A stretch of 64,000 nt of DNA. It comes from Thalassotalea nanhaiensis. Its GTDB lineage: Bacteria > Pseudomonadota > Gammaproteobacteria > Enterobacterales > Alteromonadaceae. The position numbers and the translations under genes are program-made. The notes under the pieces are model-generated. The model was not told where the DNA came from. It searched no databases and saw nothing but the letters and a program-made list of their open reading frames with translations. Positions 9,104-39,800 of the stretch are shown in pieces. The stretch covers positions 682,001 to 746,000 of the forward strand of contig NZ_CP134146.1 of the NCBI RefSeq assembly GCF_031583575.1. The letters are read 5' to 3'. The stretch's first letter is position 1; every line of letters begins with the position of its first letter.

Positions 9104-10627
9104 CTAAAATTCGCCCTCAACAATTGTGACGCTACCACTTGACGTCCAACTGTCTAATTCTTTCTGCCATGCGCTAGTATCCCAGTTAAATTCATTGCCT
9201 AACTTTATCGCTGACTCTAGGTATTCAACCGTTTTAGCAAGTTGTCTTGGTTCCATTTTTAAATGAGCCATAGCTTGCAAGTAATGGTATTCTGGGTTAT
9301 CGGCTTGCGGCTCTGCAATATCTGCCAATATTTCAATAGCACCGTCGACATCAATAAGTTGCTCATCTTTAGCGACTAATTTTATTTCTGCAGTTTTTAA
9401 CTTAGCCGGAAGATGATCTTTTTCAGATGCTTGTTCAAACCAGAATAATGCATTGTTCTCATCGTTAACTACCCAAGGACTATCTTGTAATATTCGCGCT
9501 AGGCGATATTGTGCGTGGCTATGCTCTTGCTTGGCAGCCTCAAAAATCCAATGTACAGCTTGTTTAAAGTCTGTTTGTTCACGATAGAGCTTCAGTCCGT
9601 ATTCATATTTAGCCATAACATAGCCATGTTCGGCCGCGGCTTTAAGTAATTGGTCAACATAACCTTTTTCTTGCTTCAACCATGGAAAATTCAATAATGC
9701 CATAGCTTGATTGTACTTATCTTTAGGCGAATCACTATCGTCTAGCTTACTGGTTAACTTTCGCATTTTAGTGTAGAAATAGTTATAGTCGCGTTGCATT
9801 CTCCATTTGTTATAACTGGCGATGCCAAGGTATGTACGGTTAACAAAGTATACATTTTTATCGTTCAGCGTTGGCTTTGGTAACGTATTAAATGATAAAT
9901 CAAAAAGGACTGATTTTACGTCTCCGCTAGCTTTTACCTCGGTGATGTTTCTAATAGAGCCATCAGGACCTACATCATAATCGGCAATTAGAAAATAAGG
10001 CTCTTCTTCAGGGAATGCATCTGACTCTGATTCAAAACTTTCTGCACTACTGCCCATGTCATCAGCTCCCCCAGATAAACCTCCACCAGAATAGCCATCA
10101 TTCATTGATAATGAATTACTAAAACCCATATCTGTAACGATATTTGCATCACTCAAATCAGGCATATCATCGAAAAGTAGTTTATTGCTTAAGTTTTCTT
10201 CTATTATAATTGGCGCATAGTTTCGGTAAACAAGTTGTCTAGCCAATGCTTCTTGAGACGATTTGATCAGTTGTGTCACTTCAGCCTTTTCAGCAGGTTG
10301 TACATTAGCAATTAAGTTATTAACGATTTCTACAGAATTATCATAATTAAAATCAGCAGCCATCGAAAACCAAACAAGCGCTTTGATATTATCAGCAGCT
10401 GTACCTAAGCCTTTATAATGCATTACACCGAGTTGATAATAAGCTTTTGGGCTTACGGTTTCTGCGGCAACTAAATATTCATTTAAAGCTAAGTTGTATT
10501 TCTGCTCTAAAAAATATCTATCAGCTTTTTTGATAGTTGCAACATTGTCAGTGGCATTACTAGCACAAGTGATAAAAATAAATGAAGTTATCAGTGCTTT
10601 GATAACTGTATTGTTCAAAAATCGCAT
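9104..10627 (-). CDS. Secreted Sel1-repeat protein with a TonB-C-like middle segment
   Basis: A 507-residue exported protein (signal peptide about 1-25). Sel1-type helical repeats are visible around 60-95 (YYQLGVMHYKGLG) and again around 330-420 (AKYEYGLKLYREQ, AQYRLARILQD). Between them lie a Gly/Ser/Asp-rich linker (about 165-205) and a segment (about 210-265, YDVGPDGSIRNITEV) that resembles the C-terminal domain of TonB-like proteins in its G-x-I-x-x-I-x-V pattern; that resemblance is suggestive only. It precedes a sulfatase with a 10-base gap. Sel1 repeats are protein-interaction modules, so an adaptor role for the degradation machinery is possible. I do not recognise a named family for the whole protein. 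Confidence 0.78.
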   Translation of the reverse strand: MRFLNNTVIKALITSFIFITCASNATDNVATIKKADRYFLEQKYNLALNEYLVAAETVSPKAYYQLGVMHYKGLGTAADNIKALVWFSMAADFNYDNSVEIVNNLIANVQPAEKAEVTQLIKSSQEALARQLVYRNYAPIIIEENLSNKLLFDDMPDLSDANIVTDMGFSNSLSMNDGYSGGGLSGGADDMGSSAESFESESDAFPEEEPYFLIADYDVGPDGSIRNITEVKASGDVKSVLFDLSFNTLPKPTLNDKNVYFVNRTYLGIASYNKWRMQRDYNYFYTKMRKLTSKLDDSDSPKDKYNQAMALLNFPWLKQEKGYVDQLLKAAAEHGYVMAKYEYGLKLYREQTDFKQAVHWIFEAAKQEHSHAQYRLARILQDSPWVVNDENNALFWFEQASEKDHLPAKLKTAEIKLVAKDEQLIDVDGAIEILADIAEPQADNPEYHYLQAMAHLKMEPRQLAKTVEYLESAIKLGNEFNWDTSAWQKELDSWTSSGSVTIVEGEF

Positions 10628-10710
10628 TTCGTAAAGTCCTTTAATAACTTAATTGATTTAATAATGAATTTAACTGAATACACATTTATTGCTCTGCATA
10701 GCAATTTTCC

Positions 10711-10809
10711 AATCCTTTAACATCCATGTTGGATTGCCATTCCTTCATCCCTGAAGTGAGCAAACCCTTTAACATCCATGTAGGGTTACCATTACTTCAT
10801 CCCTGAAGT
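10711..10809 (-). repeat. Two tandem hairpin repeats, about 47 bases each
   Basis: Units at 10711-10757 and 10763-10809 have the same layout: a stem AATCC/GGATT (first) or AACCC/GGGTT (second) around a TTTAACATCCATGT loop, followed by a small hairpin CTTCA-TCCC-TGAAG. The two stems differ by paired changes that keep base pairing. Related sequences occur at 56206-56238 and 57141-57425. They lie between two leftward genes, just downstream of a terminator. Confidence 0.7.
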
Positions 10810-10810
10810 A

Positions 10811-10841
10811 AAAAAGGCTTCTCAGTACATGAGAAGCCTTT
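10811..10841 (-). terminator. Rho-independent terminator of the giant surface protein gene
   Basis: Perfect 12-base stem AAAGGCTTCTCA/TGAGAAGCCTTT with a 5-base loop, followed on the minus strand by a T-run. It lies 19 bases past the stop of the gene ending at 10860. Confidence 0.85.
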
Positions 10842-10859
10842 GTCAGTTAGAAGCGAAAC

Positions 10860-13800
10860 TTATTTAACGTTAAATAAGCGTCTAGCCAGAGTCATAGTCG
10901 AAAAGAACAACATAGCTAGGAATCCAAATGAACCATTATCAGGGCTCTTTTGTTCAGTTTTAGCAACCATAGCACTTAATTGAATCGTTTCAGATGTCCA
11001 CTCTGATTTGTTACCATCGGCATCTAATATATACGAACCATCATAGTCTCGAACATAGTTAGATACGGTAACCTCAATAACCAGTTCGTTATCGATATTA
11101 ATTTCAGGTATGGTAAAAGTTGTACTTGCCGGACTACCTAATACCTCATTGAAAGTAATTGGTACCGAAGCTGAACCTGTTTCATTAGCACCAGGTCTAA
11201 CTCTCCAAGCATAAGATAGTTCGCCTGCTTCGCTATCAAAAGAGGTTGATGCGTCTAGCATAACTTCTTCGCCTGCGGTTAACTCCATGCCCGCTAATGA
11301 CATCCCGCCTGCGTCACTCAAGTAGCTGAGAGTCGCATTAGGGGTAATAACAGCTGGTGCGTTCGTTATGGTTACTGAATATGTTTGAGAAACAGATTCT
11401 AGACCATCATCAATAGTCAACATAACTTCAAAGTCTGCTTGCTCTGTAAGCATTTCTGGCGCCATGATGTTAACGCTGCCACCATTGACAGAAGGCTCTA
11501 ATACAATGCCCTCAACACCTTTACCTTGAAGTTCAGTTTCAGGCACTAAACTCCACGTGTAAGTTGCATTGTCAGCATTTGGTATACTCGTTCCAGCGTC
11601 TATTGTAATCAGTTCTGATTCAACCGCTGCAATTGCAGTTCGTGGTGCTTTAATAAGAACAGTTCTCTTACTATTTTTTGGATGACCATCGTTAACATCT
11701 AGAATACCGTCATTATCATCATCGTCATCAAGGATAGCATCTGAGTTCGCAATACAAGCTTCTTCACATGTCTTCACATAGCTATCAGGTAGACCATCTC
11801 CGTCAGTATCAGCGGCGACAGAAGGATCTTCTGGGAAGCCATCAGCAATATCAATAACGCCATCTGCATCGGTATCTAAACCTGAAGGAAGCTCTTGGAA
11901 AGACAAGTTATCCATCCAAAGTCTAGCATCATCAGAATTATTTAAGTTAACTGAAGCATCACCAACTGTGTGCACAACAACTCTAAATGGATGACTTATA
12001 TCGATGTCTTCTGGTGCGACGAATTCTTCTGTAAGCGTAACCCATTTGTAAGCTGATTCTGCAGTTGCATCTAACTCAACGGTTGTTACTTCCGCAACGT
12101 CATCTACAACAGGTGCATCTACCTTCACGTATCGATAAGAAAGCTGTACTGTACCTAATGCAGCAGCATCGGCAGAGAACACATAAGTAGCACCAGGTAC
12201 AATACCTTCTACTTCACGGTATAAACCTTCTAAATGATTAGTACGTTTGTGGTTCATAAAGGCAACTACACCTGTTCGGCCTTCTGGTGCTCTAACGTCA
12301 AAACCATTTTCTGGTTGGGTTCGGGTTTCATTAATATATCGTGACCAACCTTTGGCTGTTTGCCCTATCGCTTGGATCTTATTACCTTCATCATCTACGC
12401 GTGCAGTAAAGATGGCGTTTGGCTCAGCAAAGCCATAGTTACCAATACCCCAGCCTTCAGTTATAAATCCAGTTACGGTTTCCATACCACCATCGAAGAA
12501 ATACTCTAATGGGTATTCAACGACTGGGAACGTTTTCTTAACAGTAGCAGGTATCTCGAAAGTATTTGAACTCGCTACAATGTTGTCGCCATTATCATCA
12601 AGAATATAGGTACCATCGTAATCACGCAGATAGTTAGTTACCGTAAGCTCGATAGTAATTGGAGTATCAGCCTTCACTAATGGAACATAGAATGTTGGAT
12701 CAGCGGCAGACATATCACTAAATTCAAGCGGAACACCACCTGTTACTTTCCATTTAAAAGAAAGCATTCCGTCTTCACTATCAAATGAAGCCGAAGCATC
12801 CAGTTGAATTTTTTCACCGTATGCTAATACAACGCCTTCACTGTCTAACATGCCAGTCATGGTTGCAGTAGGTGTAATAGCCGCTGGAGCATTAGTAACG
12901 CTTACATTGTAAGTATCACTAACTGTCTGTGCCGCACCGGCAACAGTTAAAGAAATAACAATTTCTTCTTGTTGAGCAATGTTAGTAGGTGCGGTAAAGG
13001 TAACCATAGAGCCATCTGGAGTTAATGAAACATTAGCTCCTGAATCTTGTGCCCAGGTGTATGTCGCCAATTCACTGTTTGGAACAGAAGGGCTTGCATC
13101 AATTGTTACTTCTTCACCTTCAACAACAGAAGAAGATTCTGTTGCAAACGCTATCATTACGCTTTGGCTAGCATCTGTCGGGTAACCATCGTTTACATCA
13201 AGAATACCATCACCATCATCATCGTCATCAATCACTAAATCGCTAGCTTCTTGACATGCAGCATCACAATCTTCGTTATAGTCATCAGGCATACCATCGC
13301 CATCAGTATCTACACTAGCTGCTGGGTCTTCTGGGAATGCATCAGAGCTGTCTGGCGTACCATCTTCATCTGTATCTGCTAAAGATGGAGGACCCATTAA
13401 TGAGTAGTTATCTGTCCATAATAATGAACGTGGCGTTACACTAATATCGCCAGTAGCGGGGTATGCAACACTTGGTGCAGTGTGAATAAAGACAATAAAG
13501 TCTTTCGTAATATCTACGTCAGCAGGTACTGCAAAACTATCGGTTACATTAACCCATGCGCCATCGGAAACGACTTCGTTGGTTAACTGAACAACAGTTC
13601 TGGTTTCTTCACCTGTTTTAACATAAGAGTAAGCCCAACGAACACTACCTTTGTTGGCTGCATCACCTGATAGTTCATAGGTTTTACCAATTTGGATTTC
13701 TTCAACAATGCGGCCAATACCGGCTGCATCATTATTTCGATTGTGGTTACAAAATGCCACGGCTTCACTGTCATTTCCTGCAGGAATTGCCTCTGAACCT

Positions 13801-14654
13801 GCAGCAGGTTTGGCCGTTTGTGTTCTATCTTTGTTGATGAAACGACACCAACCTGATTTGAATCCCGCGACTTCTACACTATAAGCTGCAGTTGTACCAT
13901 CTGATAGAAGCGGACCATTACCCCAAGCGCTGTTACCTGAGCCAAAGCCAGTTACACTTTCTAAATCACCACCAGAGAAATATTCTACAGGGTCTGGTAA
14001 GAACATTACTTCGTAATCATCTACCCACATTAAAGAGCGAGGGGTTTCTAAAATTACTGTTTCAGGATGAGCGTCACTAGGCTGTGTGTGTATATAAACA
14101 CGAAATTGTTTGGTTAAATCAGCATCAGCTGGCACAGTGAATTTATCTGTAATTGTTACCCACGCAAGATCTGACACAACAATATTGTCCAAGTCTGTGT
14201 TAGTAACAACATCTTCACCTTGTTTGGTATATTCAATCGCCCATTGTAATGAACCGCGCGTTGCACCTTTTGCCGAAACACTATAAGTTTTACCTGATTC
14301 TAGGCCTTCAACAGCACGATAAATACCACCACTGTCATCAGCTCGCTTGTGGTTACAATAGGCAACGTTAGTGTTATTTCCAGCAGGTGAATGCTCTGTC
14401 ACACCTGCTTTTTCAGAAGTTATTGTGTCATTAATAATACGACACCAACCCGGTCCAATTTGACCCCATGCTTGGGTAGTACCGTCAGATAACATTGGCC
14501 CGACATTAAAAGCTAGATTGCCACCAGCGTTAAAACCTGTGAGGCCTTCTAATGTACCTTCTGAAGTTAAATTTTCAGCAAGTGAAGGAGCACTTGCAAA
14601 GATTAACGTTGCAGCAACTGCTGTAGCAACTTTAGTTTTTAATAATTTGCTCAT
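10860..14654 (-). CDS. Giant multidomain surface protein: carbohydrate-binding-like, TSP3 and PKD-like repeats
   Basis: I choose the ATG at 14654, which opens a clear signal peptide (about 1-26) after GAGAA; an in-frame ATG at 14732 would add 26 charged residues. The 1264-residue protein has three CenC/CBM-like domains (about 30-215, 225-420, 695-890; each with GW(C/S)R-INxT, an F/Y-C/M-N-H-(K/N)-R motif and a GKTY turn). It also has two Asp-rich thrombospondin type 3-like calcium blocks (about 430-500 and 910-975), several PKD/REJ-like beta domains, and a C-terminal helix ending ARRLFNVK that resembles GlyGly-CTERM sorting tails. No catalytic domain is seen. A LacI-type operator lies 96 bases upstream, matching those of the TonB receptor and GH2. 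A cell-surface glycan-capture role is inferred. Confidence 0.85.
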   Translation of the reverse strand: MSKLLKTKVATAVAATLIFASAPSLAENLTSEGTLEGLTGFNAGGNLAFNVGPMLSDGTTQAWGQIGPGWCRIINDTITSEKAGVTEHSPAGNNTNVAYCNHKRADDSGGIYRAVEGLESGKTYSVSAKGATRGSLQWAIEYTKQGEDVVTNTDLDNIVVSDLAWVTITDKFTVPADADLTKQFRVYIHTQPSDAHPETVILETPRSLMWVDDYEVMFLPDPVEYFSGGDLESVTGFGSGNSAWGNGPLLSDGTTAAYSVEVAGFKSGWCRFINKDRTQTAKPAAGSEAIPAGNDSEAVAFCNHNRNNDAAGIGRIVEEIQIGKTYELSGDAANKGSVRWAYSYVKTGEETRTVVQLTNEVVSDGAWVNVTDSFAVPADVDITKDFIVFIHTAPSVAYPATGDISVTPRSLLWTDNYSLMGPPSLADTDEDGTPDSSDAFPEDPAASVDTDGDGMPDDYNEDCDAACQEASDLVIDDDDDGDGILDVNDGYPTDASQSVMIAFATESSSVVEGEEVTIDASPSVPNSELATYTWAQDSGANVSLTPDGSMVTFTAPTNIAQQEEIVISLTVAGAAQTVSDTYNVSVTNAPAAITPTATMTGMLDSEGVVLAYGEKIQLDASASFDSEDGMLSFKWKVTGGVPLEFSDMSAADPTFYVPLVKADTPITIELTVTNYLRDYDGTYILDDNGDNIVASSNTFEIPATVKKTFPVVEYPLEYFFDGGMETVTGFITEGWGIGNYGFAEPNAIFTARVDDEGNKIQAIGQTAKGWSRYINETRTQPENGFDVRAPEGRTGVVAFMNHKRTNHLEGLYREVEGIVPGATYVFSADAAALGTVQLSYRYVKVDAPVVDDVAEVTTVELDATAESAYKWVTLTEEFVAPEDIDISHPFRVVVHTVGDASVNLNNSDDARLWMDNLSFQELPSGLDTDADGVIDIADGFPEDPSVAADTDGDGLPDSYVKTCEEACIANSDAILDDDDDNDGILDVNDGHPKNSKRTVLIKAPRTAIAAVESELITIDAGTSIPNADNATYTWSLVPETELQGKGVEGIVLEPSVNGGSVNIMAPEMLTEQADFEVMLTIDDGLESVSQTYSVTITNAPAVITPNATLSYLSDAGGMSLAGMELTAGEEVMLDASTSFDSEAGELSYAWRVRPGANETGSASVPITFNEVLGSPASTTFTIPEINIDNELVIEVTVSNYVRDYDGSYILDADGNKSEWTSETIQLSAMVAKTEQKSPDNGSFGFLAMLFFSTMTLARRLFNVK

Positions 14655-15044
14655 AGTTTTCTCGTATTCTTCTTTGTTGTGTTCCAACAAATGCTTTTTG
14701 TTGTATAAACTTTGTTGTTGAAAACGGATCATTATCTAATTTTTATTATTAGGGATAACGTTATACCTAATTTACACTCTGTAAAGAATTTGTAAACCTT
14801 TTTATCGTATAAATCATAAAATAAAGCGATTTAATTTAACCTTAGCATTATTTAATGTCAACAATATGTAGTTTAAGGTTTTGATAAATAAGCGTTTATA
14901 TGTAAGATTTTAAGTGTTTTAAATGGAGTGGATTTTTTAGCTGTTTACTATTATTACTCTTTTAGCGTTTAAAATAGACAAAACCTTGCATTAAATAAGG
15001 TGGTTAACATCTTGTTTACATTACTTTCTGTTGAGTATTTATAA
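14655..15044. other. Intergenic region, 390 bases
   Basis: Leader and promoter region of the leftward surface protein gene plus the tail of the GH2 transcript. It holds the operator at 14750-14769, an AT-rich TTTATCGTATAA-type element near 14800-14812 and many short A/T runs. I see no gene in it. Confidence 0.7.
14750..14769 (-). promoter_or_regulatory. LacI-type operator upstream of surface protein gene
   Basis: TAGGGATAACGTTATACCTA, a CG-centred palindrome matching its own complement at 18 of 20 positions. The minus strand contains TAACGTTATCC, fitting TAACGTTNTCC shared with the sites at 18431, 36104 and 39401. Proposed target of the LacI protein encoded at 35018-36028. Confidence 0.75.
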
Positions 15045-15081
15045 AAAACGCCCTTATTTATATGATAAATAAGGGCGTTTT
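15045..15081 (-). terminator. Rho-independent terminator of the GH2 gene
   Basis: Long stem AAAACGCCCTTATTTA paired with AAATAAGGGCGTTTT around a short loop, followed by A/T-rich sequence. It lies 9 bases past the GH2 stop at 15090. Confidence 0.85.
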
Positions 15082-15089
15082 AATAGATT

Positions 15090-18000
15090 TTAAAAAGTAG
15101 AGGTTTGAATAATAAAGCTAAAGCTCAATGGTTTATCAGCTCTTACATGATATTTCTGCATGGTTTTAGCCCCCCAACTGTGATCGCCACCAACGCCATG
15201 AATGGCTAAATCCAAGTTCACGTTGATATATGGGCGAACGGGTAAGTCATAGTAATGCTTGCGCCTGATGCGCGCGGCTTCTGAAAATTTATCATTTACA
15301 TCAGTAATAGAGTACAAGTCGGTTTCATTGTGTGACCATGCTCTAAAGTTAAACGGTTGCATGCCTGTTACTTGTAAAGATACTTGCTCGTTAGCAAAAC
15401 CAGCACTGCGAACATCGCTGCGGTTGCTGCTATCGGTAGCCGAAACATAAGGCACCTGGAACTCAGTCAACGATTTTTGGTAGTTGCCAATACGGGCTGC
15501 GGTTTTTCTATCTGGGTAGTTTTCAAATGGTCCTCTACCATACCAACTTATATCACTTAGCGATGGCTCTAAGGCAACACGCATACCAAATTTAGGCATG
15601 TACTTTTCAGTTATTCGAGCAACATCTGGTATATAGTCTGCCTGTACTTGAATATCGCCTTGATCATTAATTAAATAGACCAGTTTGTAATCGGCATTAT
15701 TAACGATTAATTTAGCGTTAACTGTTATCTCAACGAGATTTGAATCGAGTGTTTTCGTGTTAATTGAAGTGATTTTTCGATACGCAGCGGCATTCATCCA
15801 GTTAGCCATTCGTTCAATAAACTTATTACGGCCTTGGTTGTTATTTACCGGTTTCCAAAAGTAGGGCGCAAGTGGTTCAACTAGTAACTCTTGCTTGCCA
15901 ATTTGGTAACTACTGATCTCTCCGGTAATGGCATCAATACTAATTTGTTTATTATTTGTATTAACCAAAATGTGATCAGCCGTTTTTGTTACATCAATGG
16001 TTGCGTTATTGCTTTTAGCTATAACAGCGTATTGATAAGGACTGATAACAAACTGCTCAAAGGCAACTTCAAAACCTTTTTCAGCCCAAACTTCGTTTTG
16101 TTTTGTATGCGCAGATACTTCAAGCAATAGCTCACCATATTGTTTATCACTGTCGGCGTTAAAAGGGATACTAAATTCAGTCTGCCCTTTGGCTGCAGCA
16201 CTAACGTTAAAGTTACCTTTAGCGATAACTTTATCTTGATCTTTCACTTGCCATTTAAAGTCGTATTTGGCCAAATCAGTGAAATCAAAGCGGTTGCTAA
16301 TATTAATGGTTAACGGTTTTTCGGTTTGCTTGAACCAAATATTTTGCTGAACTTTTTTCGCTTCATAGTAACTTGGAAACGGCTTTCTATCTGCAGACAC
16401 AATGCCATTAAGTAAAAATTCGGCGTCGGTAGGTTTGTCACCAAAGTCACCACCGTAAGCCCAAACTTCACGTTCATCGTTTAAGCTTAGCTGTTTAGGA
16501 TCGCTGCCATAACTTACCATTGCAGTATTTTTAACTCGCGCAAGACCTTGATCTACCCAGTCCCATATTGCACCACCTACATAATTATCGTTGGCGTAAA
16601 TTGTATCCCAATGCTCTTGAAAATTACCTAATGAATTACCCATAGCGTGGGCATATTCACGTTGAATAAATGGCTTGTTAACCTTTTTAGATTTCTTTAG
16701 ATATTCATGCACATCAGTGGTTGTGCGATAACTGCGTTCAACAAAATCAGATGCCTCTGCATCGGTATCTGATAAAAGAGGACGAGAACTATCGATAGCT
16801 AATATTGCTTCTCGCATGGCCATAAAATTACGCCCAGCACCACCTTCATTGCCTAATGACCAAATGGCTATTGCCGTATAGTTTTTGTTGGTATGTACCA
16901 TAGAGGTTGCTCTATCAATATGGGCGATAGTCCAGTTAGGGTTATCACCAAGTATTTTGTTACGCGTTTTATAGCCATGACTTTCTTGGTTAGCATCATC
17001 AAGTACATAAAGACCATATTCATTGGCAAGTGCGTACCAACGATGATCATTAGGGTAGTGACTGGTACGTACTAAATTAAAGTTACCTTGTTTCATTAAT
17101 TTAATATCCAACTCCATGGTTTTTAAATCAACATAACGACCCATTCTAGGATGATGTTCATGGCGGTTTACGCCTTTGATTTTTACAGACTTACCATTTA
17201 CCCAAAATTGGTTGTTTTCAACCTTGGTTTCTTTAAAACCAAACGACCAAGGAATGTACTCAAGTGCATTACCCTCATTATCAACAACCGCTAACATCAT
17301 AGAATAAAGCGTAGGGGATTCAGCGCTCCATAGACTCACATCGCTAAGATCTAACGATATATTCCCTGATTGTTCACCTTGTTTTTGTTCTATTTTAGCT
17401 GATTGTTCGCTAAGTAATTCTCCATCTGGAGAATATAAAGTCATTTGCAATTGATGATCTTGAAATGACTTTGAATCATCAGAATTTGCTAGATCAAAAT
17501 CAATATTTAAAGTCGCGTCTTGATAATTGTTTTTAAGATCGGTGCGAATAAGAAAATCTTCTAAATAAACTTGTGGACGAGCAATTAAATTAACGTCTCT
17601 AAATATACCGCTAAAGCGCCACATATCTTGACCTTCAAGGTAACTGCCATCTGACCATCGATATACTTCAACAGCCAAGTCATTCTCACCGTCAACTAGA
17701 TATTCACTAATATCAAATTCAGCAGGAGTCATACTGCCTTGGCTATAACCGACCTTTTCACCGTTAACCCATAAATAGAATGCTGACTTAACACCTTGAA
17801 ATTCAATGAAGACCTGTTGGTTTGCTAAGCTTTTATCAACAGTGAATTTACGCTTGTAACTGCCTACCGGATTACGATTAACAAAGTTAGTGTAATGCTT
17901 TGGTGGTTCGGTCATTACTCTAGGCTGGTCTTTGGCAAATGGGTAAGGATGATTGGTATAAATTGGTGTGCCATAGCCTTGAGTTTGCCAATTACCGGGT

Positions 18001-18317
18001 ACATCAATTTCTGCCCAGGCGCTTACATCATGATCAGTTTTATAAAAGTCAGTAGGGCGCTTATCAGGGTGTCCTACCCAGTTAAATTTCCATTTACCAT
18101 TTAGAGATTGAATGCGAGTTGAGCTTTTATTAGTTTCAGCATTTTCTTTATCAGCAAAAGGGCGAATGAATGCATGTCCAGCCACTTTATTGATACCTAT
18201 TATTTGTGGGTTCTCCCAGTCAGGCACCGCTGATGATTCTGCAGCGACTAAATAAAAGTTAGCCAAGCAGAAAGTTGCAAAGGCTAAGGATATTTGCAAA
18301 AAACTTATTTTTTTCAT
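15090..18317 (-). CDS. Exported GH2 beta-galactosidase (LacZ-like)
   Basis: The start at 18317 gives a signal peptide (MKKISFLQISLAFA) with a GAGAT ribosome site; an upstream ATG at 18368 adds 17 residues and is less likely. At 1075 residues it matches full-length LacZ: sugar-binding jelly roll (about 60-225), Ig-like domain, TIM barrel with NRHEHHP, acid/base Glu491 in SLGNEGG, nucleophile Glu554 in REYAHAMGNS, and a C-terminal beta-galactosidase small-chain domain (about 780-1070). Unlike E. coli LacZ it is exported. It should release galactose from the non-reducing end of desulfated galactan fragments, feeding galETK. A LacI-type operator lies 114 bases upstream. Transcribed alone, with its own terminator. 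Confidence 0.95.
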   Translation of the reverse strand: MKKISFLQISLAFATFCLANFYLVAAESSAVPDWENPQIIGINKVAGHAFIRPFADKENAETNKSSTRIQSLNGKWKFNWVGHPDKRPTDFYKTDHDVSAWAEIDVPGNWQTQGYGTPIYTNHPYPFAKDQPRVMTEPPKHYTNFVNRNPVGSYKRKFTVDKSLANQQVFIEFQGVKSAFYLWVNGEKVGYSQGSMTPAEFDISEYLVDGENDLAVEVYRWSDGSYLEGQDMWRFSGIFRDVNLIARPQVYLEDFLIRTDLKNNYQDATLNIDFDLANSDDSKSFQDHQLQMTLYSPDGELLSEQSAKIEQKQGEQSGNISLDLSDVSLWSAESPTLYSMMLAVVDNEGNALEYIPWSFGFKETKVENNQFWVNGKSVKIKGVNRHEHHPRMGRYVDLKTMELDIKLMKQGNFNLVRTSHYPNDHRWYALANEYGLYVLDDANQESHGYKTRNKILGDNPNWTIAHIDRATSMVHTNKNYTAIAIWSLGNEGGAGRNFMAMREAILAIDSSRPLLSDTDAEASDFVERSYRTTTDVHEYLKKSKKVNKPFIQREYAHAMGNSLGNFQEHWDTIYANDNYVGGAIWDWVDQGLARVKNTAMVSYGSDPKQLSLNDEREVWAYGGDFGDKPTDAEFLLNGIVSADRKPFPSYYEAKKVQQNIWFKQTEKPLTINISNRFDFTDLAKYDFKWQVKDQDKVIAKGNFNVSAAAKGQTEFSIPFNADSDKQYGELLLEVSAHTKQNEVWAEKGFEVAFEQFVISPYQYAVIAKSNNATIDVTKTADHILVNTNNKQISIDAITGEISSYQIGKQELLVEPLAPYFWKPVNNNQGRNKFIERMANWMNAAAYRKITSINTKTLDSNLVEITVNAKLIVNNADYKLVYLINDQGDIQVQADYIPDVARITEKYMPKFGMRVALEPSLSDISWYGRGPFENYPDRKTAARIGNYQKSLTEFQVPYVSATDSSNRSDVRSAGFANEQVSLQVTGMQPFNFRAWSHNETDLYSITDVNDKFSEAARIRRKHYYDLPVRPYINVNLDLAIHGVGGDHSWGAKTMQKYHVRADKPLSFSFIIQTSTF

Positions 18318-18430
18318 AGGTATATCTCGTTGGTCTATTTTAATGCGTTTGCTGACGATGTATTTCACTCGTGGAAAATCAAAGAGTTTTTGTTTTAATT
18401 ATTTGAAACTCAAGCATCACTAATTATTCA

Positions 18431-18450
18431 AAAGGATAACGTTTTCCTAC
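18431..18450. promoter_or_regulatory. LacI-type operator between GH2 and clan GH-A gene
   Basis: AAAGGATAACGTTTTCCTAC; contains TAACGTTTTCC on the plus strand and an AGGA/TCCT dyad around the CG centre. It may control GH2 (start 114 bases away) and possibly the divergent gene at 18747. Confidence 0.7.
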
Positions 18451-18460
18451 GTGCTTGTAA

Positions 18461-33435: not shown

Positions 33436-33633
33436 TAACCTGAACTTGGGATAACAACTTGCTTTCTACCTGCTGTTATTCCTTATTACTACGTTAAATT
33501 TATTTGCAATAGACCAGCTATTGACGCACAAATTTGCCTTGTATTAAGAAACAACATCAAGCTAGAACCATAAAAATATCGAATTTTATAAATTACAGCA
33601 CGCTAACTAACTTCTTATCCCGAGTTCAGGTTA
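33436..33633. mobile_element. MITE-like element with 19-base terminal inverted repeats
   Basis: TAACCTGAACTTGGGATAA (33436-33454) faces TTATCCCGAGTTCAGGTTA (33615-33633); as inverted repeats they differ at one of 19 positions and similarity continues inward with mismatches for about ten more bases. The element is 198 bases long, has no open frame, and contains a further inverted pair GGGATAACA/TGTTATTCC near its left end. The right end supplies the TAA stop of the symporter gene. It fills most of the 310-base gap between two leftward genes. Confidence 0.6.
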
Positions 33634-35001
33634 CGTATCTTTATGGGATTTTTGGTACTTGTTTAACAAAAATACGGCGAGCATGCTTGGAATGATAGTG
33701 CCAAGGCTTAATATTAATTTCATTGATAGCAAGGCATTGCTTGATTGAGCATTAGCTAAACTGGCATCAAAACCAATTATATTTAAACTCATGCCACTGG
33801 CTAATAATGCAAATATAATACTTAACGCTACTACCCATTGGTATACGGAAGCAAAACCACCTTGGCGGCTTATCTTGTGAGTTTGGTGATCTTGATCGCT
33901 AGCTTGTGCAACCAATGCAGGGATAATAATGGTCATCGAAGTCCAAATCGCAGAACATAATATTGGATCAAGCAATATCAACCATTGTACGCCAGGTGTG
34001 TATATAAACCATTTTGCCCCCCCACCAATGGCAGTCATAATAAAAATTATTTTAAGTGTGGCTAACTTGCCAATGCGTCTGGAAAACCAAGATACAATAG
34101 GGATATAAATGGCTGCTATTATTGCATAGCCCATAGAAAGTACGGCTTTCCATACCGCCCCGTCGCTGATATTGCCATCGAACATATAATAAACGAGTAC
34201 GTAATAGTCCATTTTTGCAGCATAAGCGCCAATCCCCAATTGAATGAAGATAATGACAAATACCAGTCGCATTAAATGCGATTGCATAATAGATTTTACA
34301 TTTTCCACAACAGTAAAGTTATTATGTGGATGGTTAATGGGTTCAACGCTATTTTCTTTCACATACAGAGCAGGCAACATACCAATGATGCCAATAACAA
34401 AAATAGCGGTAAACCAACCAACAGCTTTAATGCCAACAAAGGTGCTGGAGAATATAGTTAAGGTAGCAAGTGGATACAACCATTGATTGCTCATTGAGGC
34501 CAGCTTGATGAAATACGAGTTGGTTTCCATCACTTTTATACGTTGGTGAGCGTCTTTGGTTATCTCATAAGATAATGAAGTTAATGGAACGCTATAAAAG
34601 GAAGCTGCTGCATAAAATAATAATGAAATAACAAAAAAGTACAGTAGTTGGTTATCTGTAGACCAATGTTCAGGAACCATCCACATTAAACCGAAAAGCG
34701 AAGCACTTAGCCATGCTGATACAAATATAAAAGGGCGTCTACGGCCAAATTTACTGGTGCAGTTATCAGATAATTTACCAACCCATGGTGCTAAAAATGC
34801 AGAAAAAATTATCGGTATGGTTAAGGTAATACTAAACAAGAAAGGGTCTACGCCAAGCGTCATTTGATAAAAAGGTATGGCTAAAATTTCACAAGCTTTC
34901 TCTAAAAAAAGCAAACAGAAAAAGCCGCTGCCTAACGCAAGTTTTTGAGAAAGCTTGAGTTCACTGTTTTCTGTATTATTAACGCGATTGAGGCGAGTCA
35001 T
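33631..35001 (-). CDS. GPH-family sugar:cation symporter
   Basis: A 456-residue inner-membrane protein with about twelve hydrophobic segments. It has the glycoside-pentoside-hexuronide (MelB-like) marks LAPWVGKLSDN and GRRRPFIF in the first loop, and the typical N-terminal EKACEILAIPFYQ helix. It would import mono- or oligosaccharides released in the periplasm, using a Na+ or H+ gradient. It follows the LacI regulator after 16 bases, so regulator and transporter are co-transcribed and should share the operator at 36104. The last codon and stop fall in the terminal repeat of the MITE-like element. Galactose or a small galactan fragment is the expected cargo. Confidence 0.88.
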   Translation of the reverse strand: MTRLNRVNNTENSELKLSQKLALGSGFFCLLFLEKACEILAIPFYQMTLGVDPFLFSITLTIPIIFSAFLAPWVGKLSDNCTSKFGRRRPFIFVSAWLSASLFGLMWMVPEHWSTDNQLLYFFVISLLFYAAASFYSVPLTSLSYEITKDAHQRIKVMETNSYFIKLASMSNQWLYPLATLTIFSSTFVGIKAVGWFTAIFVIGIIGMLPALYVKENSVEPINHPHNNFTVVENVKSIMQSHLMRLVFVIIFIQLGIGAYAAKMDYYVLVYYMFDGNISDGAVWKAVLSMGYAIIAAIYIPIVSWFSRRIGKLATLKIIFIMTAIGGGAKWFIYTPGVQWLILLDPILCSAIWTSMTIIIPALVAQASDQDHQTHKISRQGGFASVYQWVVALSIIFALLASGMSLNIIGFDASLANAQSSNALLSMKLILSLGTIIPSMLAVFLLNKYQKSHKDT

Positions 35002-35017: not shown

Positions 35018-36028
35018 TTATTTGGCACAAAAGTTTGCCACTGAATCTCTCTCAATGAGGTGTGGCATAAATAAATGTGTTCGCCCATTTGGTTCTGGAT
35101 TTGTAGACAGTTCAATGGCTAAATTAGTAGCAAACTGGGCCATTTCTCTTACTGGGTAGTGCATAGTAGTAAGCTGTGGAATACAAGCAACAGAAATCAA
35201 CATATCATCAAAACCAATTACCGAAATATCTTCAGGAACGCGTATGCCGCGAGCATTTAGTTCATGAACAGCACCAATCGCCATATTATCGTTATAAACC
35301 AATAGGGCAGTGAATTTTTTATCTTTTTTGAATAAGGCACTAACAGCTTCCTTACCGCCTTCCATATCGGCAGTAGCACCATATTCAATCATTGAGTTAT
35401 CTAATTGGATATTGGCGTTATTTAAAGCTGTGTGAATCCCTTCAAGGCGAAGAAGTGAATCAGGGTTTGAATCTTTACGAGTAATGACTGCAAAATTGGT
35501 ATGGCCTTTCTCTAAAAGGAAGGAGCCGGCTTTTTGTGCACCTAAGTTATTGTCTAACCAGATACATCGATGTGGTATTTCGGCAATAAAGCGATTAATG
35601 AAAACCAAACCTGATATTTTTTCCGCCAAGGTAACTAAAGTTTCATCACTACAATGTTGAGAATGAAAAACTATGGCATTGCAGTGATGTTGCACCAATG
35701 AATCTATTGCATCAAGCTCTGCTTGCTCACTGCCTTGTGCGTTACTAATTAATACTCGGTAGTTTTTTTCTATTGCCGCTTCTTCAGCGCCACAAGCTAA
35801 AGTACCAAAAAATGGCATAGATACTTTTGGAATAACTACACCGAGTGAGTTAGATTTTTTATTTACCAATGCTTGTGCATTAATATTTGGTCGATAACCT
35901 AACTCATCAATAACTTTTTGAACTTTAGCGCGGCACGCATCGCCAACTTTTCCCTGTTTTCGAACAACCCGAGATACGGTAGAAATGGATACTTCTGCTA
36001 CTCTTGCAACGTCTTTTATTGTGACCAT
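35018..36028 (-). CDS. LacI/GalR-family transcriptional regulator
   Basis: A 336-residue regulator: N-terminal helix-turn-helix (VTIKDVARVAEVSISTVSRVV, residues 2-22), hinge helix around NINAQALVNKKSN, and a periplasmic-binding-protein-like ligand domain (about 60-330) with the usual VIGFDD segment. It is GalR/GalS-like and probably a repressor relieved by a galactose-type inducer. Ribosome site AAGGA precedes the ATG. A CG-centred dyad 76 bases upstream (36104-36123) suggests autoregulation, and similar dyads mark the surface protein, GH2 and TonB receptor genes. First in a two-gene unit with the GPH symporter. Confidence 0.93.
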   Translation of the reverse strand: MVTIKDVARVAEVSISTVSRVVRKQGKVGDACRAKVQKVIDELGYRPNINAQALVNKKSNSLGVVIPKVSMPFFGTLACGAEEAAIEKNYRVLISNAQGSEQAELDAIDSLVQHHCNAIVFHSQHCSDETLVTLAEKISGLVFINRFIAEIPHRCIWLDNNLGAQKAGSFLLEKGHTNFAVITRKDSNPDSLLRLEGIHTALNNANIQLDNSMIEYGATADMEGGKEAVSALFKKDKKFTALLVYNDNMAIGAVHELNARGIRVPEDISVIGFDDMLISVACIPQLTTMHYPVREMAQFATNLAIELSTNPEPNGRTHLFMPHLIERDSVANFCAK

Positions 36029-36103
36029 TTATCTATTCCTTCAGACTGTTAAAAGCGCCATTAGTGGTATTCTAAATAACCCTTCCCCTAGCAGGGAAAA
36101 TAC

Positions 36104-36123
36104 TAGGACAACGTTACCAATAA
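36104..36123 (-). promoter_or_regulatory. LacI-type operator upstream of lacI-symporter unit
   Basis: CTAGGACAACGTTACCAATA; the minus strand holds GGTAACGTTGTCC, fitting TAACGTTNTCC. It is very close to the receptor site at 39401 (GGTAACGTTTTCC). It implies autoregulation of the LacI protein. Confidence 0.72.
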
Positions 36124-36339: not shown

Positions 36340-39273
36340 TTAGAAGTTTGCTCTAACACCTGCATACCAGCTGATACCACGGTGAGTTTGTTCCAGGATG
36401 AAATTTGGGTGTGCTGTGCCAACTTTATCACTATAAAGGTTGCCAGAAGTTGTTTCTTCGTCTAACAAGTTTGCGGCTTGTGCAAAGACTTGAAAACTTT
36501 GGCTGACTTTGTATCTCAAGCTCAAGCTTAAGTTTTTGCTTGGCCATTGAACCGAAGCTTTGTCACCTTCTGGACGTGCTTGGTACTCTTGCTGATTAAG
36601 GTTTAATCTAGCATTGAATTTTCCGCCGTAATCATAAGTAAGCGCAACGTTATAAGTACTGTCTATCCAGCCAAGCGGTTGGTAGTACAACTCAGTAGGT
36701 CTATCTAATGGTCCATCACCAGGCTCTCTTGGGTTGTAATCTTGTTCCGCATCATAGTAGAAATCCATGTAGTTACCAGACAGAGCGAAGCCTTTTAAGT
36801 ACTTGGTAATTCCACCTAGGTTTTGTCTAAATGAGAATTCTACACCAGATACCGTACCGCCTTCAGCTTTAACTTGAGATGTTACTGGTAAAGCCAATGG
36901 ATTGCCATCTTGATCAAACATGCCCTCTGCAGGAATATAATTTGCACCTGTCTCATAAATACCATCAAGATCTTTATAGAAGCCTGCTAATGCATAGTAA
37001 TCCCATCTAGTCGGGTAATACTCGAACGAAATATCCGCTTGTTTAGACTCGATAGGGTCTAAATAAGGGTTACCTGCCCGACCTAAAGATCTACTGTTTG
37101 TTGGTTGATTCTCGTCAAAGCCATTGTCATTTAATGCAACACTTGAATTAATATCACCTAAGCTTGGGCGTATAATCGCTTTACCTGCGCCAATACGAAT
37201 TACCACATCGTCAATTAATCTTAAGTTAACGTTCAATGTTGGTAATATGTCTTCATATTCGTTTTTCTCTGTTGCCCATTCTAACTCACCAATAATAAGT
37301 TCAAACTCATTCATGGTTTCATCTGTTGGTGTTAAATAGAATGGACTTTGCCAGCTCGAAGATTCGAGTTCAGTTTTATAATAACGAAGACCAAACGTAC
37401 CATCATACCATTGGCCTGCGAAGCTTGTTTGAACGTAGAATGCAGTGGTGTTTTCTTCCAGTTCATAGCTTTCTATTTTATCGGCATCATCCATTACTCT
37501 TGCTGGTAAATATTCAGCTTTATCACTTAATATTTGCCCAGGGTTGAAAGCAAAAATTTCATCATAGCCTTTAATCTTAGTTAACTTTTGAAAAGGCTTT
37601 GTGGTAATAGTACGGTTTAGTGCGTGAAAATCAACATCACTGATTTGATCCCAGTTTTCGGTATTTTGATCATATTTTTCACTATCAGCGATATGGTCTT
37701 TGGTATTTTCTGAGTACCTTGCGCCCACTTTAAATTGGTGGAAAATGCCAAATTCTGTATCCCAAGTTATGTCAAACTTAACTGCAGAAACTTCACTTTC
37801 CATAAAGTTATGACCATTACTAAGGCCTTCAAAGTTCCATAGGTCTGGGTTATTCATTACATTGGTTAATTGGCTTTGATCTAATTCATACGTATCTGGG
37901 TTAAATGCATTGCCATCACTAGGCTCACTACCTAAATACTCAAAACCATATTCGTCATTATAGTGATCAAACGCAAGATAATGATTCATGTTAGCAGCAT
38001 ATTTACCATTACCTGCACGCCAACTGTAAAAACGATCTGCGGTTGAGCGAGACACATCAAAATTAAGATGTAAATCGTCAGTTAATTGATATTTAGTATT
38101 AATACCAAATACTTCCGTTTCGTCGTTGTTTAATACGTTCGCATCCCATTTACCCAAAGAATTCACACTTGCGATGCCACTCATAACGTAATGTGTATCA
38201 GGGTCAATATCTGCCATTGTAGGGTCAACATGGGATACACCACTTGCTAATCCCCAATGGCTCATGATTGCCATATCCATGGTGTAGTCATAAGTAGAAG
38301 TTAGGTAATCAACACTAACCATTAAATCATCAGTGGGAGCCCATTGAGCGGCAGCAAATATAGATTCTTGTCTAATGTCAAATTTCTTAGAACTAAGTGT
38401 TGATGCTGGGTTAGCGATTTCATCATTAACCCCATCATCATTCCAATCGGTTAACCAGCCCATATTGGTAACTAGCTCGCCATTTTTAATGCCTTCGATG
38501 TAACGAATATCATCTCTAAATGAACCACCAATAGAAACAGCAATATCGTCGGTAATATGGTGACTTACTAAAGCTTGAAGATTTCTACCGTATTTATCGT
38601 TGTCAGTTAACTCTTTAAAAAGGTGTGCATCCTCTTCTTTGGCAGAAGTTAAATCATCGTAAAGCGTATTACTATTAACCGTCGCAGAGATAGTTCGGAT
38701 GTTTTTGTCCACCTCTAATGGTTTAAAGGTTTCCATATTTATGTGGCCCGCGATACCACCCTCTAATGAGTCAGCTCTTGCGGTTTTATAGACTTGTGCT
38801 CTACGAATACTTGCCGACGGGAATAAACTTAAGTTTACAGAGCGAGAGCCAAATGAACTCACAATTTCACGGTCATTTAATGTGGTTAGCGTATAAGCAC
38901 CACCCATACCACGAACAGATATTGTATTACTACGACCTCTATCTTGGTTACCTGTTACACCAGTTAATCTTTCTAGTGATTCAGCAATACTTTGATCAGG
39001 TAAAGCACCAACTTCTTCTGCTGATAAGTTATCTGAGATGGTATTGGCGAACTTTTTCATGTTAATGGCTGCAACTTCACTCGAGCGCATACCACCAACG
39101 GTAATTACTTCGATTTCATCTTCTTTAAGTGCAGCTTCTTTTTCGGCAGCTTTTTCTTTTGCTGTTTTTTCTGCTGTTACTTCAACTGCTTCAGCTTCTT
39201 CAGCAAAAGCATATGAAGGAGCTTGTACTGCAATTGCTGCAAGTAATGCTAAACATAATTTGGACTTTTTCAT
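36340..39273 (-). CDS. TonB-dependent receptor, TIGR01782-type, for galactan oligosaccharides
   Basis: A 977-residue outer-membrane receptor. Signal peptide (about 1-25), an Ala/Glu/Lys-rich stretch (about 26-52), a TonB box EIEVITV (about 53-59), then a plug domain (SAEEVGALPDQSIAESLERLTGV, SVRGMG) and a beta-barrel ending in an aromatic residue (GVRANF). The plug signatures are those of the proteobacterial TIGR01782 receptors used for glycan uptake. It should import oligosaccharides into the periplasm, where the sulfatases and glycosidases act. It is monocistronic, with a LacI-type operator 128 bases upstream and hairpins downstream. It is the only outer-membrane importer in the window, and no SusD-type partner is present. 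Confidence 0.93.
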   Translation of the reverse strand: MKKSKLCLALLAAIAVQAPSYAFAEEAEAVEVTAEKTAKEKAAEKEAALKEDEIEVITVGGMRSSEVAAINMKKFANTISDNLSAEEVGALPDQSIAESLERLTGVTGNQDRGRSNTISVRGMGGAYTLTTLNDREIVSSFGSRSVNLSLFPSASIRRAQVYKTARADSLEGGIAGHINMETFKPLEVDKNIRTISATVNSNTLYDDLTSAKEEDAHLFKELTDNDKYGRNLQALVSHHITDDIAVSIGGSFRDDIRYIEGIKNGELVTNMGWLTDWNDDGVNDEIANPASTLSSKKFDIRQESIFAAAQWAPTDDLMVSVDYLTSTYDYTMDMAIMSHWGLASGVSHVDPTMADIDPDTHYVMSGIASVNSLGKWDANVLNNDETEVFGINTKYQLTDDLHLNFDVSRSTADRFYSWRAGNGKYAANMNHYLAFDHYNDEYGFEYLGSEPSDGNAFNPDTYELDQSQLTNVMNNPDLWNFEGLSNGHNFMESEVSAVKFDITWDTEFGIFHQFKVGARYSENTKDHIADSEKYDQNTENWDQISDVDFHALNRTITTKPFQKLTKIKGYDEIFAFNPGQILSDKAEYLPARVMDDADKIESYELEENTTAFYVQTSFAGQWYDGTFGLRYYKTELESSSWQSPFYLTPTDETMNEFELIIGELEWATEKNEYEDILPTLNVNLRLIDDVVIRIGAGKAIIRPSLGDINSSVALNDNGFDENQPTNSRSLGRAGNPYLDPIESKQADISFEYYPTRWDYYALAGFYKDLDGIYETGANYIPAEGMFDQDGNPLALPVTSQVKAEGGTVSGVEFSFRQNLGGITKYLKGFALSGNYMDFYYDAEQDYNPREPGDGPLDRPTELYYQPLGWIDSTYNVALTYDYGGKFNARLNLNQQEYQARPEGDKASVQWPSKNLSLSLRYKVSQSFQVFAQAANLLDEETTSGNLYSDKVGTAHPNFILEQTHRGISWYAGVRANF

Positions 39274-39400
39274 TTTTTTCCCGCCTTGAATGCATCAAGT
39301 TATCGTTTGTTTTGTTATCTTTTTCTTCGCAAACTTTTTTTTCAAACTTTGTTATCTCAATAATTACAATAAGTAATTCAAAACAGAGAAAAACAATAGG

Positions 39401-39420
39401 TAGGGAAAACGTTACCATAG
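39401..39420 (-). promoter_or_regulatory. LacI-type operator upstream of TonB receptor gene
   Basis: TAGGGAAAACGTTACCATAG; the minus strand holds GGTAACGTTTTCC. Shares TAACGTTNTCC with the three other sites of the locus; 128 bases before the receptor start. Confidence 0.75.
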
Positions 39421-39800
39421 GCTTTTCGCTGTGGCAACATTTATGTTACTTATCTTATAAATAAATTAATTTTTTATTAACCTCTCTGCAACGTTGTTTT
39501 TTTGTGTTTTTTCGTATCTCCTTGAAAAGATTGTGTTTTTTGTATTTGTTGTATTTTTTTGTATTTTTGGTTTATTTATTAATTAATATAAAATATGAGG
39601 AATAGGCGGCTATTTAACGTTTTTTCATACAAAAACATGCCAGAGGTTTAACAAGGTGTTAACGCCGTGTGCAGGTAAAAGCATTATTGATTATTTAAAC
39701 TTATAGCGCAAAAAATTTTCTGAAAAACCAAAAAGTCTAAGAAATTACACCTGAATATATAGGGATTGGTTCGTGTTAGTTCTATTTATTTGAGTACTGG
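39421..39800. other. AT-rich intergenic stretch, 380 bases
   Basis: Between the receptor promoter and the end of the sulfatase operon. It is T-rich on the plus strand with many TTTTT and TATTT runs, and contains one weaker TAACGTTTTTTC match near 39617. No gene, and no convincing terminator for the sulfatase operon, was seen. Confidence 0.55.

What the first reader, a model, noticed from the sequence alone, without database searches (positions are those of the whole stretch)
10860..14654. Giant non-catalytic surface protein co-regulated with the TonB receptor
Three carbohydrate-binding-like domains, two calcium-type repeat blocks, PKD-like domains and a GlyGly-CTERM-like tail, but no catalytic domain. 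Its operator matches that of the receptor. Proteobacterial loci lack SusD; this could be a functional counterpart that captures polysaccharide at the cell surface and hands it to the receptor. I know of no described example of this arrangement.
Basis: partly seen in the sequence, partly recalled or inferred. Interest (0 to 1): 0.72.

Follow-up and report, generated by a model that had tools for sequence, protein, structure and literature searches.

The report
Surface sugar-binding partner of TonB receptor
A marine bacterium carries a long non-enzyme protein with three sugar-binding-type domains, predicted to sit on the cell surface and to be switched on together with the outer-membrane receptor of a sulfated-polysaccharide locus, which makes it a testable candidate for a polysaccharide-catching protein in bacteria that lack the usual one (SusD).

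Summary
ORF 10860-14654(-), 1264 aa, has three mutually homologous CBM_4_9-type domains, two DxDxDG blocks, paired PKD domains and a GlyGly-CTERM-like tail; no catalytic domain was found. Domain 2 is predicted as a CBM22/CBM4-like beta-sandwich.

The shared operator is real: one 22-bp site precedes the target, the TIGR01782 receptor, the LacI gene and the GH2/GH-CBM pair. It recurs before target and receptor in all six target-bearing genomes with an orthologous LacI (this one included) and is missing in the two without it.

Of 395 family genomes, 8 have the domain and 9 the receptor orthologue; 8 are shared. All 15 domain-bearing proteins found (a lower bound) lie within 30 kb of a TIGR01782 receptor, four as its direct neighbour; in one relative a distant homologue's stop codon overlaps the receptor's ATG.

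I read it as an anchored surface glycan-binding protein, SusE/F/SGBP-like in role, co-induced with the receptor. A SusD-type lid or direct hand-over is not shown: one receptor orthologue lacks it, no calcium-repeat protein was seen near 7 other TIGR01782 receptors of this genome, and the modules sit on a string. CBM-only secreted proteins are known in Saccharophagus. New variant of a known kind.

The parts
10860..14654 (-). target ORF, 1264 aa, non-catalytic CBM/PKD protein
14577..14654 (-). Sec-type signal peptide (aa 1-26), no lipobox cysteine
   Evidence: read from the sequence; homologues start alike
13989..14573 (-). CBM-like domain 1 (aa 28-222)
   Evidence: CBM_4_9; phmmer/HMM repeats
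13386..13982 (-). CBM-like domain 2 (aa 225-423); modelled, CBM22/CBM4-like beta-sandwich
   Evidence: AlphaFold pLDDT 88.5; Foldseek 4xun E 3.2e-7
13155..13385 (-). first DxDxDG calcium-type block (aa 424-500)
12537..13154 (-). PKD pair 1 (aa 501-706)
   Evidence: second copy at domain E 4.8e-39
11880..12515 (-). CBM-like domain 3 (aa 714-925)
11655..11879 (-). second DxDxDG block (aa 926-1000)
10965..11654 (-). PKD pair 2 (aa 1001-1230), holds the best Sde0182_C match
10863..10964 (-). GlyGly-CTERM-like tail (aa 1231-1264), degenerate motif NGSFGF, hydrophobic stretch, RR
14749..14770 (.). LacI-type operator of the target, TTAGGGATAACGTTATACCTAA; beside a promoter-like match 14769-14796(-)
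18430..18451 (.). same operator between GH2 (15090-18368 -) and the CBM_4_9x2 gene (18747-20987 +)
36102..36123 (.). same operator upstream of the LacI gene
39400..39421 (.). same operator upstream of the receptor gene
35018..36028 (-). LacI-family regulator, proposed to bind the operator
   Evidence: Pfam LacI/Peripla_BP_3; its presence matches that of the operators
33631..35001 (-). MFS_2 sugar transporter beside the regulator
36340..39273 (-). TonB-dependent receptor, TIGR01782, 407.4 bits (cut-off 310)
9104..10627 (-). Sel1-repeat protein, next gene after the target homologue in several loci

Best explanation
A cell-surface glycan-binding protein of a sulfated-polysaccharide utilisation locus. 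Steps: (1) a LacI-family repressor (35018-36028) occupies one operator type before the target, the receptor, its own gene and GH2; released sugar lifts repression, so surface protein and receptor appear together (sites shown; binding inferred). (2) The protein is exported by Sec and the type II system, and its GlyGly-CTERM-like tail is cut and anchored by rhombosortase (machinery shown in the genome; processing inferred; the target's own motif is degenerate). (3) Three CBM22/CBM4-like domains on PKD and calcium-repeat spacers bind several points of one chain, holding polysaccharide at the surface for the sulfatases, glycosidases and the TIGR01782 receptor (fold predicted; binding inferred). 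Role like Bacteroidota SusE/F/SGBP proteins; not shown to be a SusD-type lid.
For: Domains and absence of catalysis. CBM-like fold: pLDDT 88.5; best PDB match CBM22 4xun, E 3.2e-7, TMt 0.69; CBM16, CBM4 and a porphyran-binding CBM (8xmz) are also listed. The same domain is inserted in a 681-aa protein of G377 whose two flanks match lacto-N-biosidase (E 3.1e-25), and a weaker copy sits in a beta-helix protein of G391: a module of sugar-active proteins. Operator before target homologue and receptor in 6 of 8 domain-bearing genomes, exactly those of the 8 with the LacI orthologue at E<=1e-60. Domain in 8 of 395 family genomes, receptor orthologue in 9 of 395, 8 shared. In the reduced G010 locus MFS, LacI, receptor and target stay side by side. 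Direct receptor neighbours in G008, G010 and twice in C. piezophila (97 bp apart; and a TAATG overlap with a receptor of another subgroup). Rhombosortase and GspD present.
Against: No binding, localisation or expression data. Receptor and target are 21.7 kb apart here, and 11 of 15 family proteins are not a receptor's direct neighbour. G054 has receptor, LacI and MFS orthologues without the domain. 0 of 7 other TIGR01782 loci of this genome show a DxDxDG protein nearby. The CBM domains are acidic (pI 4.4-4.6), not obviously suited to a sulfated polyanion. The target tail fails TIGR03501. The full-length model is weak (pLDDT 68, pTM 0.30). Chance of lying as near to any TIGR01782 receptor is 0.02-0.14 for each of 6 proteins tested in five complete genomes, and 0.12-0.20 for lying within 30 kb; the homologues share descent, so these do not multiply.
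Confidence: 0.64

Rival explanations
1. Adhesin: the protein fastens the cell to algal surfaces or particles rich in the polysaccharide and takes no part in uptake; the regulon merely switches it on where that polysaccharide is present.
For: Long PKD and calcium-repeat stalk typical of adhesive proteins; string-of-domains model with Ig-like and cadherin chains among the structural matches. The next genes on the same strand are GH2 and the Sel1 gene in 6 of 8 genomes, not the receptor.
Against: Operator shared with receptor in 6 genomes; kept next to MFS-LacI-receptor in the reduced G010 locus; overlapping gene pair with a receptor in C. piezophila; no domain match in the 386 family genomes without the receptor orthologue (taking both to have drawn the same 395).
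Confidence: 0.18
2. True functional SusD/BtuG-like partner: it docks on the receptor's outer face and delivers oligosaccharides into the barrel.
For: Receptor orthologue and domain occur together in 8 of the 9 genomes with either. In C. piezophila a second receptor paralogue has its own divergent 806-aa homologue 97 bp upstream, and a distant 934-aa homologue of the same build overlaps the ATG of a third, unlike receptor. BtuG shows that a surface protein unrelated to SusD can cap a TonB-dependent transporter (PMC10404256, passages).
Against: G054 receptor orthologue without the protein; string of domains with a C-terminal anchor; domain number varies (1 CBM domain in G026 and G253, 3 here), which a docked lid would hardly tolerate; no interface evidence.
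Confidence: 0.13
3. Scaffold that retains secreted enzymes (sulfatases, GH2) at the cell surface by protein contacts; the CBM-type folds no longer bind sugar.
For: Gene order GH2 - target - Sel1 in the window, G009, G026, G253, G391 and C. piezophila, followed by a sulfatase gene in five of these six; Sel1 repeats as protein-interaction repeats is recalled.
Against: 12 invariant columns in 16 domains and use of the domain inside beta-helix, glycosidase-like proteins point to a ligand of its own.
Confidence: 0.05

Closest known systems
Bacteroidota surface glycan-binding proteins (SusE/F, SGBP-B)
   Same: non-catalytic, several beta-sandwich domains, regulated with a TonB-dependent receptor (the Bacteroidota side is recalled); SGBP-B 7kwb is among the whole-chain structural matches (rank 42, E 1.5e-7, rmsd 17.9)
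   Different: no lipobox; GlyGly-CTERM-like tail; no SusC/SusD pair; no sequence kinship to any PDB chain found
SusD / BtuG caps of TonB-dependent transporters
   Same: proposed capture next to the receptor
   Different: no SusD_RagB match in the genome; all-beta string of domains instead of a compact cap; not strictly paired with the receptor
CBM-only secreted proteins of Saccharophagus degradans (Cbm2C = Sde0182, Cbm32A)
   Same: marine gammaproteobacterial non-catalytic CBM proteins of 933 and 1028 aa; target matches Pfam Sde0182_C (39.1 bits, cut-off 27)
   Different: CBM2/CBM32 instead of CBM_4_9-type domains; detected in culture supernatants; 'TonB' occurs nowhere in that paper's main text (PMC2386152, passages)
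CBM22 / CBM4 / CBM16 carbohydrate-binding modules
   Same: predicted fold
   Different: 8-20% identity in the structural alignments; best PDB sequence hit E 0.52, to an unrelated protein; ligand unknown
GlyGly-CTERM proteins anchored by rhombosortase (VesB)
   Same: tripartite tail, rhombosortase and GspD in the genome; 7 of 11 homologue tails pass TIGR03501
   Different: target's own tail has NG in place of GG and misses the model

Membership tests
Pfam CBM_4_9 (PF02018) | score over curated cut-off | tested here: met
   51.8 vs 25.9 bits, three stretches
Pfam CBM_4_9 (PF02018) | jelly-roll beta-sandwich fold | tested here: met
   AlphaFold model and Foldseek to CBM22/16/4
Pfam CBM_4_9 (PF02018) | binds carbohydrate | not testable with these tools
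   needs binding assay
SusD/RagB | SusD_RagB sequence profile | tested here: not met
   PF07980 has no match in the whole genome, while the control Bacteroides rings; no SusD family in the target at E<=10
SusD/RagB | lipoprotein signal peptide (lipobox cysteine) | tested here: not met
   no cysteine in the first 40 residues
SusD/RagB | encoded in tandem with its receptor | tested here: not met
   21.7 kb apart here; direct neighbours in 4 of 15 family proteins
Bacteroidota SGBP | non-catalytic multi-domain glycan binder co-regulated with the receptor | tested here: inconclusive
   architecture and shared operator shown; glycan binding untested
GlyGly-CTERM (TIGR03501) | tail over curated cut-off 15.5 bits | tested here: not met
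   target tail not reported at E<=1; 7 of 11 homologue tails over cut-off, 4 at 14.4-15.3 bits
GlyGly-CTERM (TIGR03501) | rhombosortase in the same genome | tested here: met
   TIGR03902, 176.8 bits, cut-off 84; all 14 control genomes ring below the cut-off, none over it
TIGR01782 receptor (36340-39273) | score over cut-off | tested here: met
   407.4 vs 310 bits

The most novel reading that the evidence does not exclude
Colwellia-related Gammaproteobacteria evolved, independently of SusD, receptor-dedicated surface capture proteins built from CBM22/CBM4-like domains, PKD and calcium repeats, anchored by the rhombosortase route. They are co-regulated with, and in one case translationally coupled to, TIGR01782 receptors and feed polysaccharide to them: a SusD/SGBP-equivalent module outside Bacteroidota.
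Probability: 0.3. Interest if true: 0.75.

Novelty: new variant of a known kind. Interest (0 to 1): 0.55.

Why it matters
Gammaproteobacterial polysaccharide loci have TonB-dependent receptors but no SusD. [quoted passage not shown] How the others concentrate large, charged algal polysaccharides at their surface is open. This family gives a concrete candidate with a defined regulon, a defined receptor subgroup, short versions (one CBM domain, 556-586 aa) fit for expression, an overlapping protein-receptor gene pair in a named species (C. piezophila), and natural controls (G054 with the receptor orthologue but not the protein; G008 and G009 with the protein but without the LacI and its operators).

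Tried and rejected
Hidden enzyme: rejected. NCBIfam hits to M36 metallopeptidases cover only the C-terminal part of those models in the best stretch listed and lie far under the cut-offs (91 vs 1500 and 83 vs 1700 bits). Whole-chain Foldseek matches to GH101 and insecticidal toxins have rmsd of about 9-36 over a weak model and reflect shared beta modules.

General feature of receptor loci in this genome: not seen. 0 of 7 other TIGR01782 loci have a DxDxDG protein within about 8 kb (one beta-helix protein there has a GlyGly-CTERM-like tail). This was a motif screen; of the larger ORFs there 10 were scanned with Pfam: 8 have enzyme, protease or beta-helix families and 2 have none. One of these two, a 945-aa protein with a lipobox-like start directly before a receptor (L129:5240-8077), also had no NCBIfam or PDB match, so a different kind of binding protein there is not excluded.

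Widespread family: rejected. 8 of 395 family genomes at E<=1e-8, 2 of 375 order genomes (own and G026) and 1 of 369 class genomes (own) at E<=1e-6. The protein scan of genome contigs gave 40 loci; only L033 (Colwellia piezophila) is a long match. The other 39 matched query residues within 412-1058, mostly around the acidic repeats, and were set aside.

Led nowhere: PDB sequence searches; viral structure library (phage tail and CenC-like beta-sandwiches, general fold only); promoter scan (chance-level counts).

Window organism: not named by any tool.

Counting notes: one search scored at most 8 candidates a genome and at most 2. Re-scoring G054, G253, G377 and G391 in full added two distant members, so 15 family proteins is a lower bound: 13 plus G377 C1:569981-572785 and G391 C74:340-4059. 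The C. piezophila gene at C10:176378-181418, split by a run of N, counts as one. Of the 15, two contain beta-helices (G377 681 aa, G391 1239 aa). Distances come; those of the two late members are 0 kb (overlap) and about 15 kb by subtraction. Homologue tails tested: 11 of 14 homologues (not tested: the two late members and the 681-aa beta-helix protein).

Full report
Observation. The ORF at 10860-14654 (-) encodes 1264 aa. Pfam reports CBM_4_9 (three stretches), K319L-like PKD (three stretches), PKD_4 and Sde0182_C (two each) over their cut-offs, and no catalytic family up to E 10. The order is: signal peptide, CBM1, CBM2, DxDxDG block, PKD pair, CBM3, DxDxDG block, PKD pair, hydrophobic-basic tail. 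The three CBM domains and the two PKD pairs are repeats of one another, so the protein looks like a duplicated CBM - calcium block - PKD-PKD unit. The unit exists alone in G026 (556 aa) and G253 (586 aa).

Fold. Domain 2 modelled with 16 domain sequences gives pLDDT 88.5. Foldseek against the PDB puts CBM22 first (4xun, E 3.2e-7, TM 0.57 by query and 0.69 by target). CBM16, CBM4, an alginate-binding CBM and a porphyran-binding CBM follow, mixed with cyclases, toxin-pore and other beta-sandwich proteins. A sequence profile finds no solved relative (best E 0.52). The whole chain (aa 27-1226) gives a weak model (pLDDT 68, pTM 0.30): a string of beta domains with low-confidence calcium blocks. Its best match is the CBM22-CBM22 tandem 4xup (E 2.8e-16), and SGBP-B of B. 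thetaiotaomicron is at rank 42. These whole-chain matches have large rmsd and are weak evidence.

Sugar-binding by association. In G377 (Colwellia piezophila) the domain (aa 188-382, 231.6 bits) is inserted in a 681-aa beta-helix protein. Its flanks match lacto-N-biosidase chains in the PDB (best stretches around aa 21-175 and 421-528 in different chains, best E 3.1e-25). The family name GH136 for such enzymes is recalled. In G391 a weaker copy (38.1 bits) lies in a 1239-aa beta-helix protein. This is the best sequence-based hint that the domain serves sugar-active proteins.

Locus. The window holds ten S1-type sulfatases by Pfam, a GH2, a GH116-type, a GH42-like and a beta-helix protein, a LacI regulator, an MFS_2 transporter, a TIGR01782 receptor and galE-galT-galK. 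This suggests a sulfated, galactose-containing polysaccharide; the exact substrate is not known.

Regulation. The same palindromic site lies before the target (14749-14770), between GH2 and the CBM_4_9x2 gene (18430), before LacI (36102) and before the receptor (39400). A matrix made from these four sites finds, as an independent test, sites within 150 bp upstream of both the target homologue and the receptor in G010, G026, G253, G391 and G377. They score 18.3-23.7 bits; 600 kb of random sequence gave 4 places over 14 bits. No place over 11 bits lies upstream of either gene in G008 or G009. A LacI orthologue is present in G010, G026, G253, G377, G391 (69-76% identity) and G054 (77%), and absent at E<=1e-60 in G008 and G009. 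Regulator and sites therefore agree in 8 of 8 domain-bearing genomes, this one included; G054 also has both a regulator and a receptor site. A strong hairpin at 15045-15081 separates GH2 from the target, so the target probably has its own promoter; the promoter-like match beside the operator is at chance level.

Distribution and pairing. The domain occurs in 8 of 395 family genomes, the receptor orthologue (E<=1e-190) in 9 of 395, with 8 shared. The exception G054 has a 44% receptor, LacI and MFS, but no domain even at E<=0.001. At least 15 family proteins were found in the 8 genomes; 15 of 15 lie within 30 kb of a TIGR01782 receptor over cut-off. Four are direct neighbours: G008 (566 bp), G010 (607 bp), and in C. 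piezophila the 806-aa protein (97 bp from a receptor paralogue) and a distant 934-aa homologue. The last carries CBM_4_9, calcium repeats, PKD and a tail reading SGGSFGLWSLLLVGVALFKKK (by eye); its stop codon overlaps the ATG of a receptor of another subgroup (TAATG). In G391 the receptor near the long homologue is not the orthologue, which lies on another contig. Chance of lying as near to any such receptor is 0.02-0.14, and within 30 kb 0.12-0.20, for the 6 proteins of the five complete genomes; the homologues are related by descent, so these are not independent trials. In the fetched G010 stretches 7 of the 30 window genes tabulated have a counterpart of 58% identity or more, 6 a weak one and 17 none; MFS, LacI, receptor and target are among the 7 and lie side by side.

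Surface anchoring. The genome has a rhombosortase over cut-off and two GspD over cut-off. 7 of 11 homologue tails pass TIGR03501; the target's does not. For V. cholerae VesB the abstract of PMC6219818 reports cleavage by rhombosortase that exposes the second glycine, and its modification before T2SS export to the cell surface. By analogy the target is anchored; the NG motif leaves this uncertain.

How it works. I infer that sugar lifts LacI repression, receptor and target are made together, and the anchored string of binding domains holds the polysaccharide for desulfation, cleavage and uptake. This is the job of SusE/F-type surface glycan-binding proteins. A SusD- or BtuG-like cap is possible; the overlapping C. 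piezophila pair favours a tight link with the receptor. The varying number of domains, the receptor without it in G054, and the lack of DxDxDG proteins near 7 other TIGR01782 receptors of this genome speak for an accessory role. The acidic CBM domains (pI 4.4-4.6) are a point against binding a polyanion by charge, though calcium could bridge (speculation).

Known and new. The genome has no PF07980 SusD. Passages read in PMC8319329, PMC5943477, PMC6952198 and PMC6262041 call SusC/SusD a Bacteroidetes feature or treat gammaproteobacterial receptors as analogous to it, and none of these passages names a surface-binding partner. PMC2386152 (passages) lists CBM-only secreted proteins of S. degradans, including Sde0182, whose C-terminal domain family the target matches. 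Ten paper searches (listings only, some capped) showed no described TIGR01782-paired, GlyGly-CTERM-tailed CBM protein; subscription papers are mostly not held. I therefore call it a new variant of a known kind.

Noticed in passing
L134:7981-10785 and following (G377 C1:569981-575649): C. piezophila: a 934-aa CBM_4_9/calcium-repeat/PKD protein with a GlyGly-like tail whose stop overlaps the ATG of a TIGR01782 receptor of another subgroup; 54% identical over 549 aa to the 1021-aa G010 protein.
   Followed up: partly
L129:5240-8077 (G000 C1:3347239-3350076): 945-aa protein with a lipobox-like start, 75 bp before a TIGR01782 receptor in this genome, with no Pfam, NCBIfam or PDB match; possible other kind of receptor partner.
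   Followed up: partly
window 9104-10627 (-): Sel1-repeat protein (507 aa), directly beside the target homologue in G009, G026, G253, G391 and C. piezophila C10:93 kb, and a few genes away in G008; role unknown.
   Followed up: partly
L120:12468-14510 (G377 C10:197468-199513): Lacto-N-biosidase-like beta-helix protein with a CBM domain of this family inserted in its middle.
   Followed up: partly
window 5177-6727 and 18747-20987: Two paralogous proteins (54% identity over 460 aa) with an N-terminal region that Pfam does not assign; the longer carries two CBM_4_9 domains and shares the operator with GH2.
   Followed up: partly
window 10628-10860: Two similar stretches of about 44 bases between the Sel1 gene and the target gene (seen by eye).
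   Followed up: no
window 49988-54090: DUF1800 (with CHRD) and DUF1501 pair at the edge of the locus, also in the related loci of G009, G026 and G377.
   Followed up: no
L128 (G000 C1:631000-650900): Another sulfatase/TIGR01782 locus about 31 kb left of the window, with a 697-aa beta-helix protein that has a GlyGly-CTERM-like tail.
   Followed up: no
L124:14546-17611 (G010 C1:2454546-2457611): Distant homologue (1021 aa) with CBM_4_9, bacterial TSP3 repeats, PKD and a GlyGly-CTERM tail of 22.6 bits in a different sulfatase-rich locus.
   Followed up: partly
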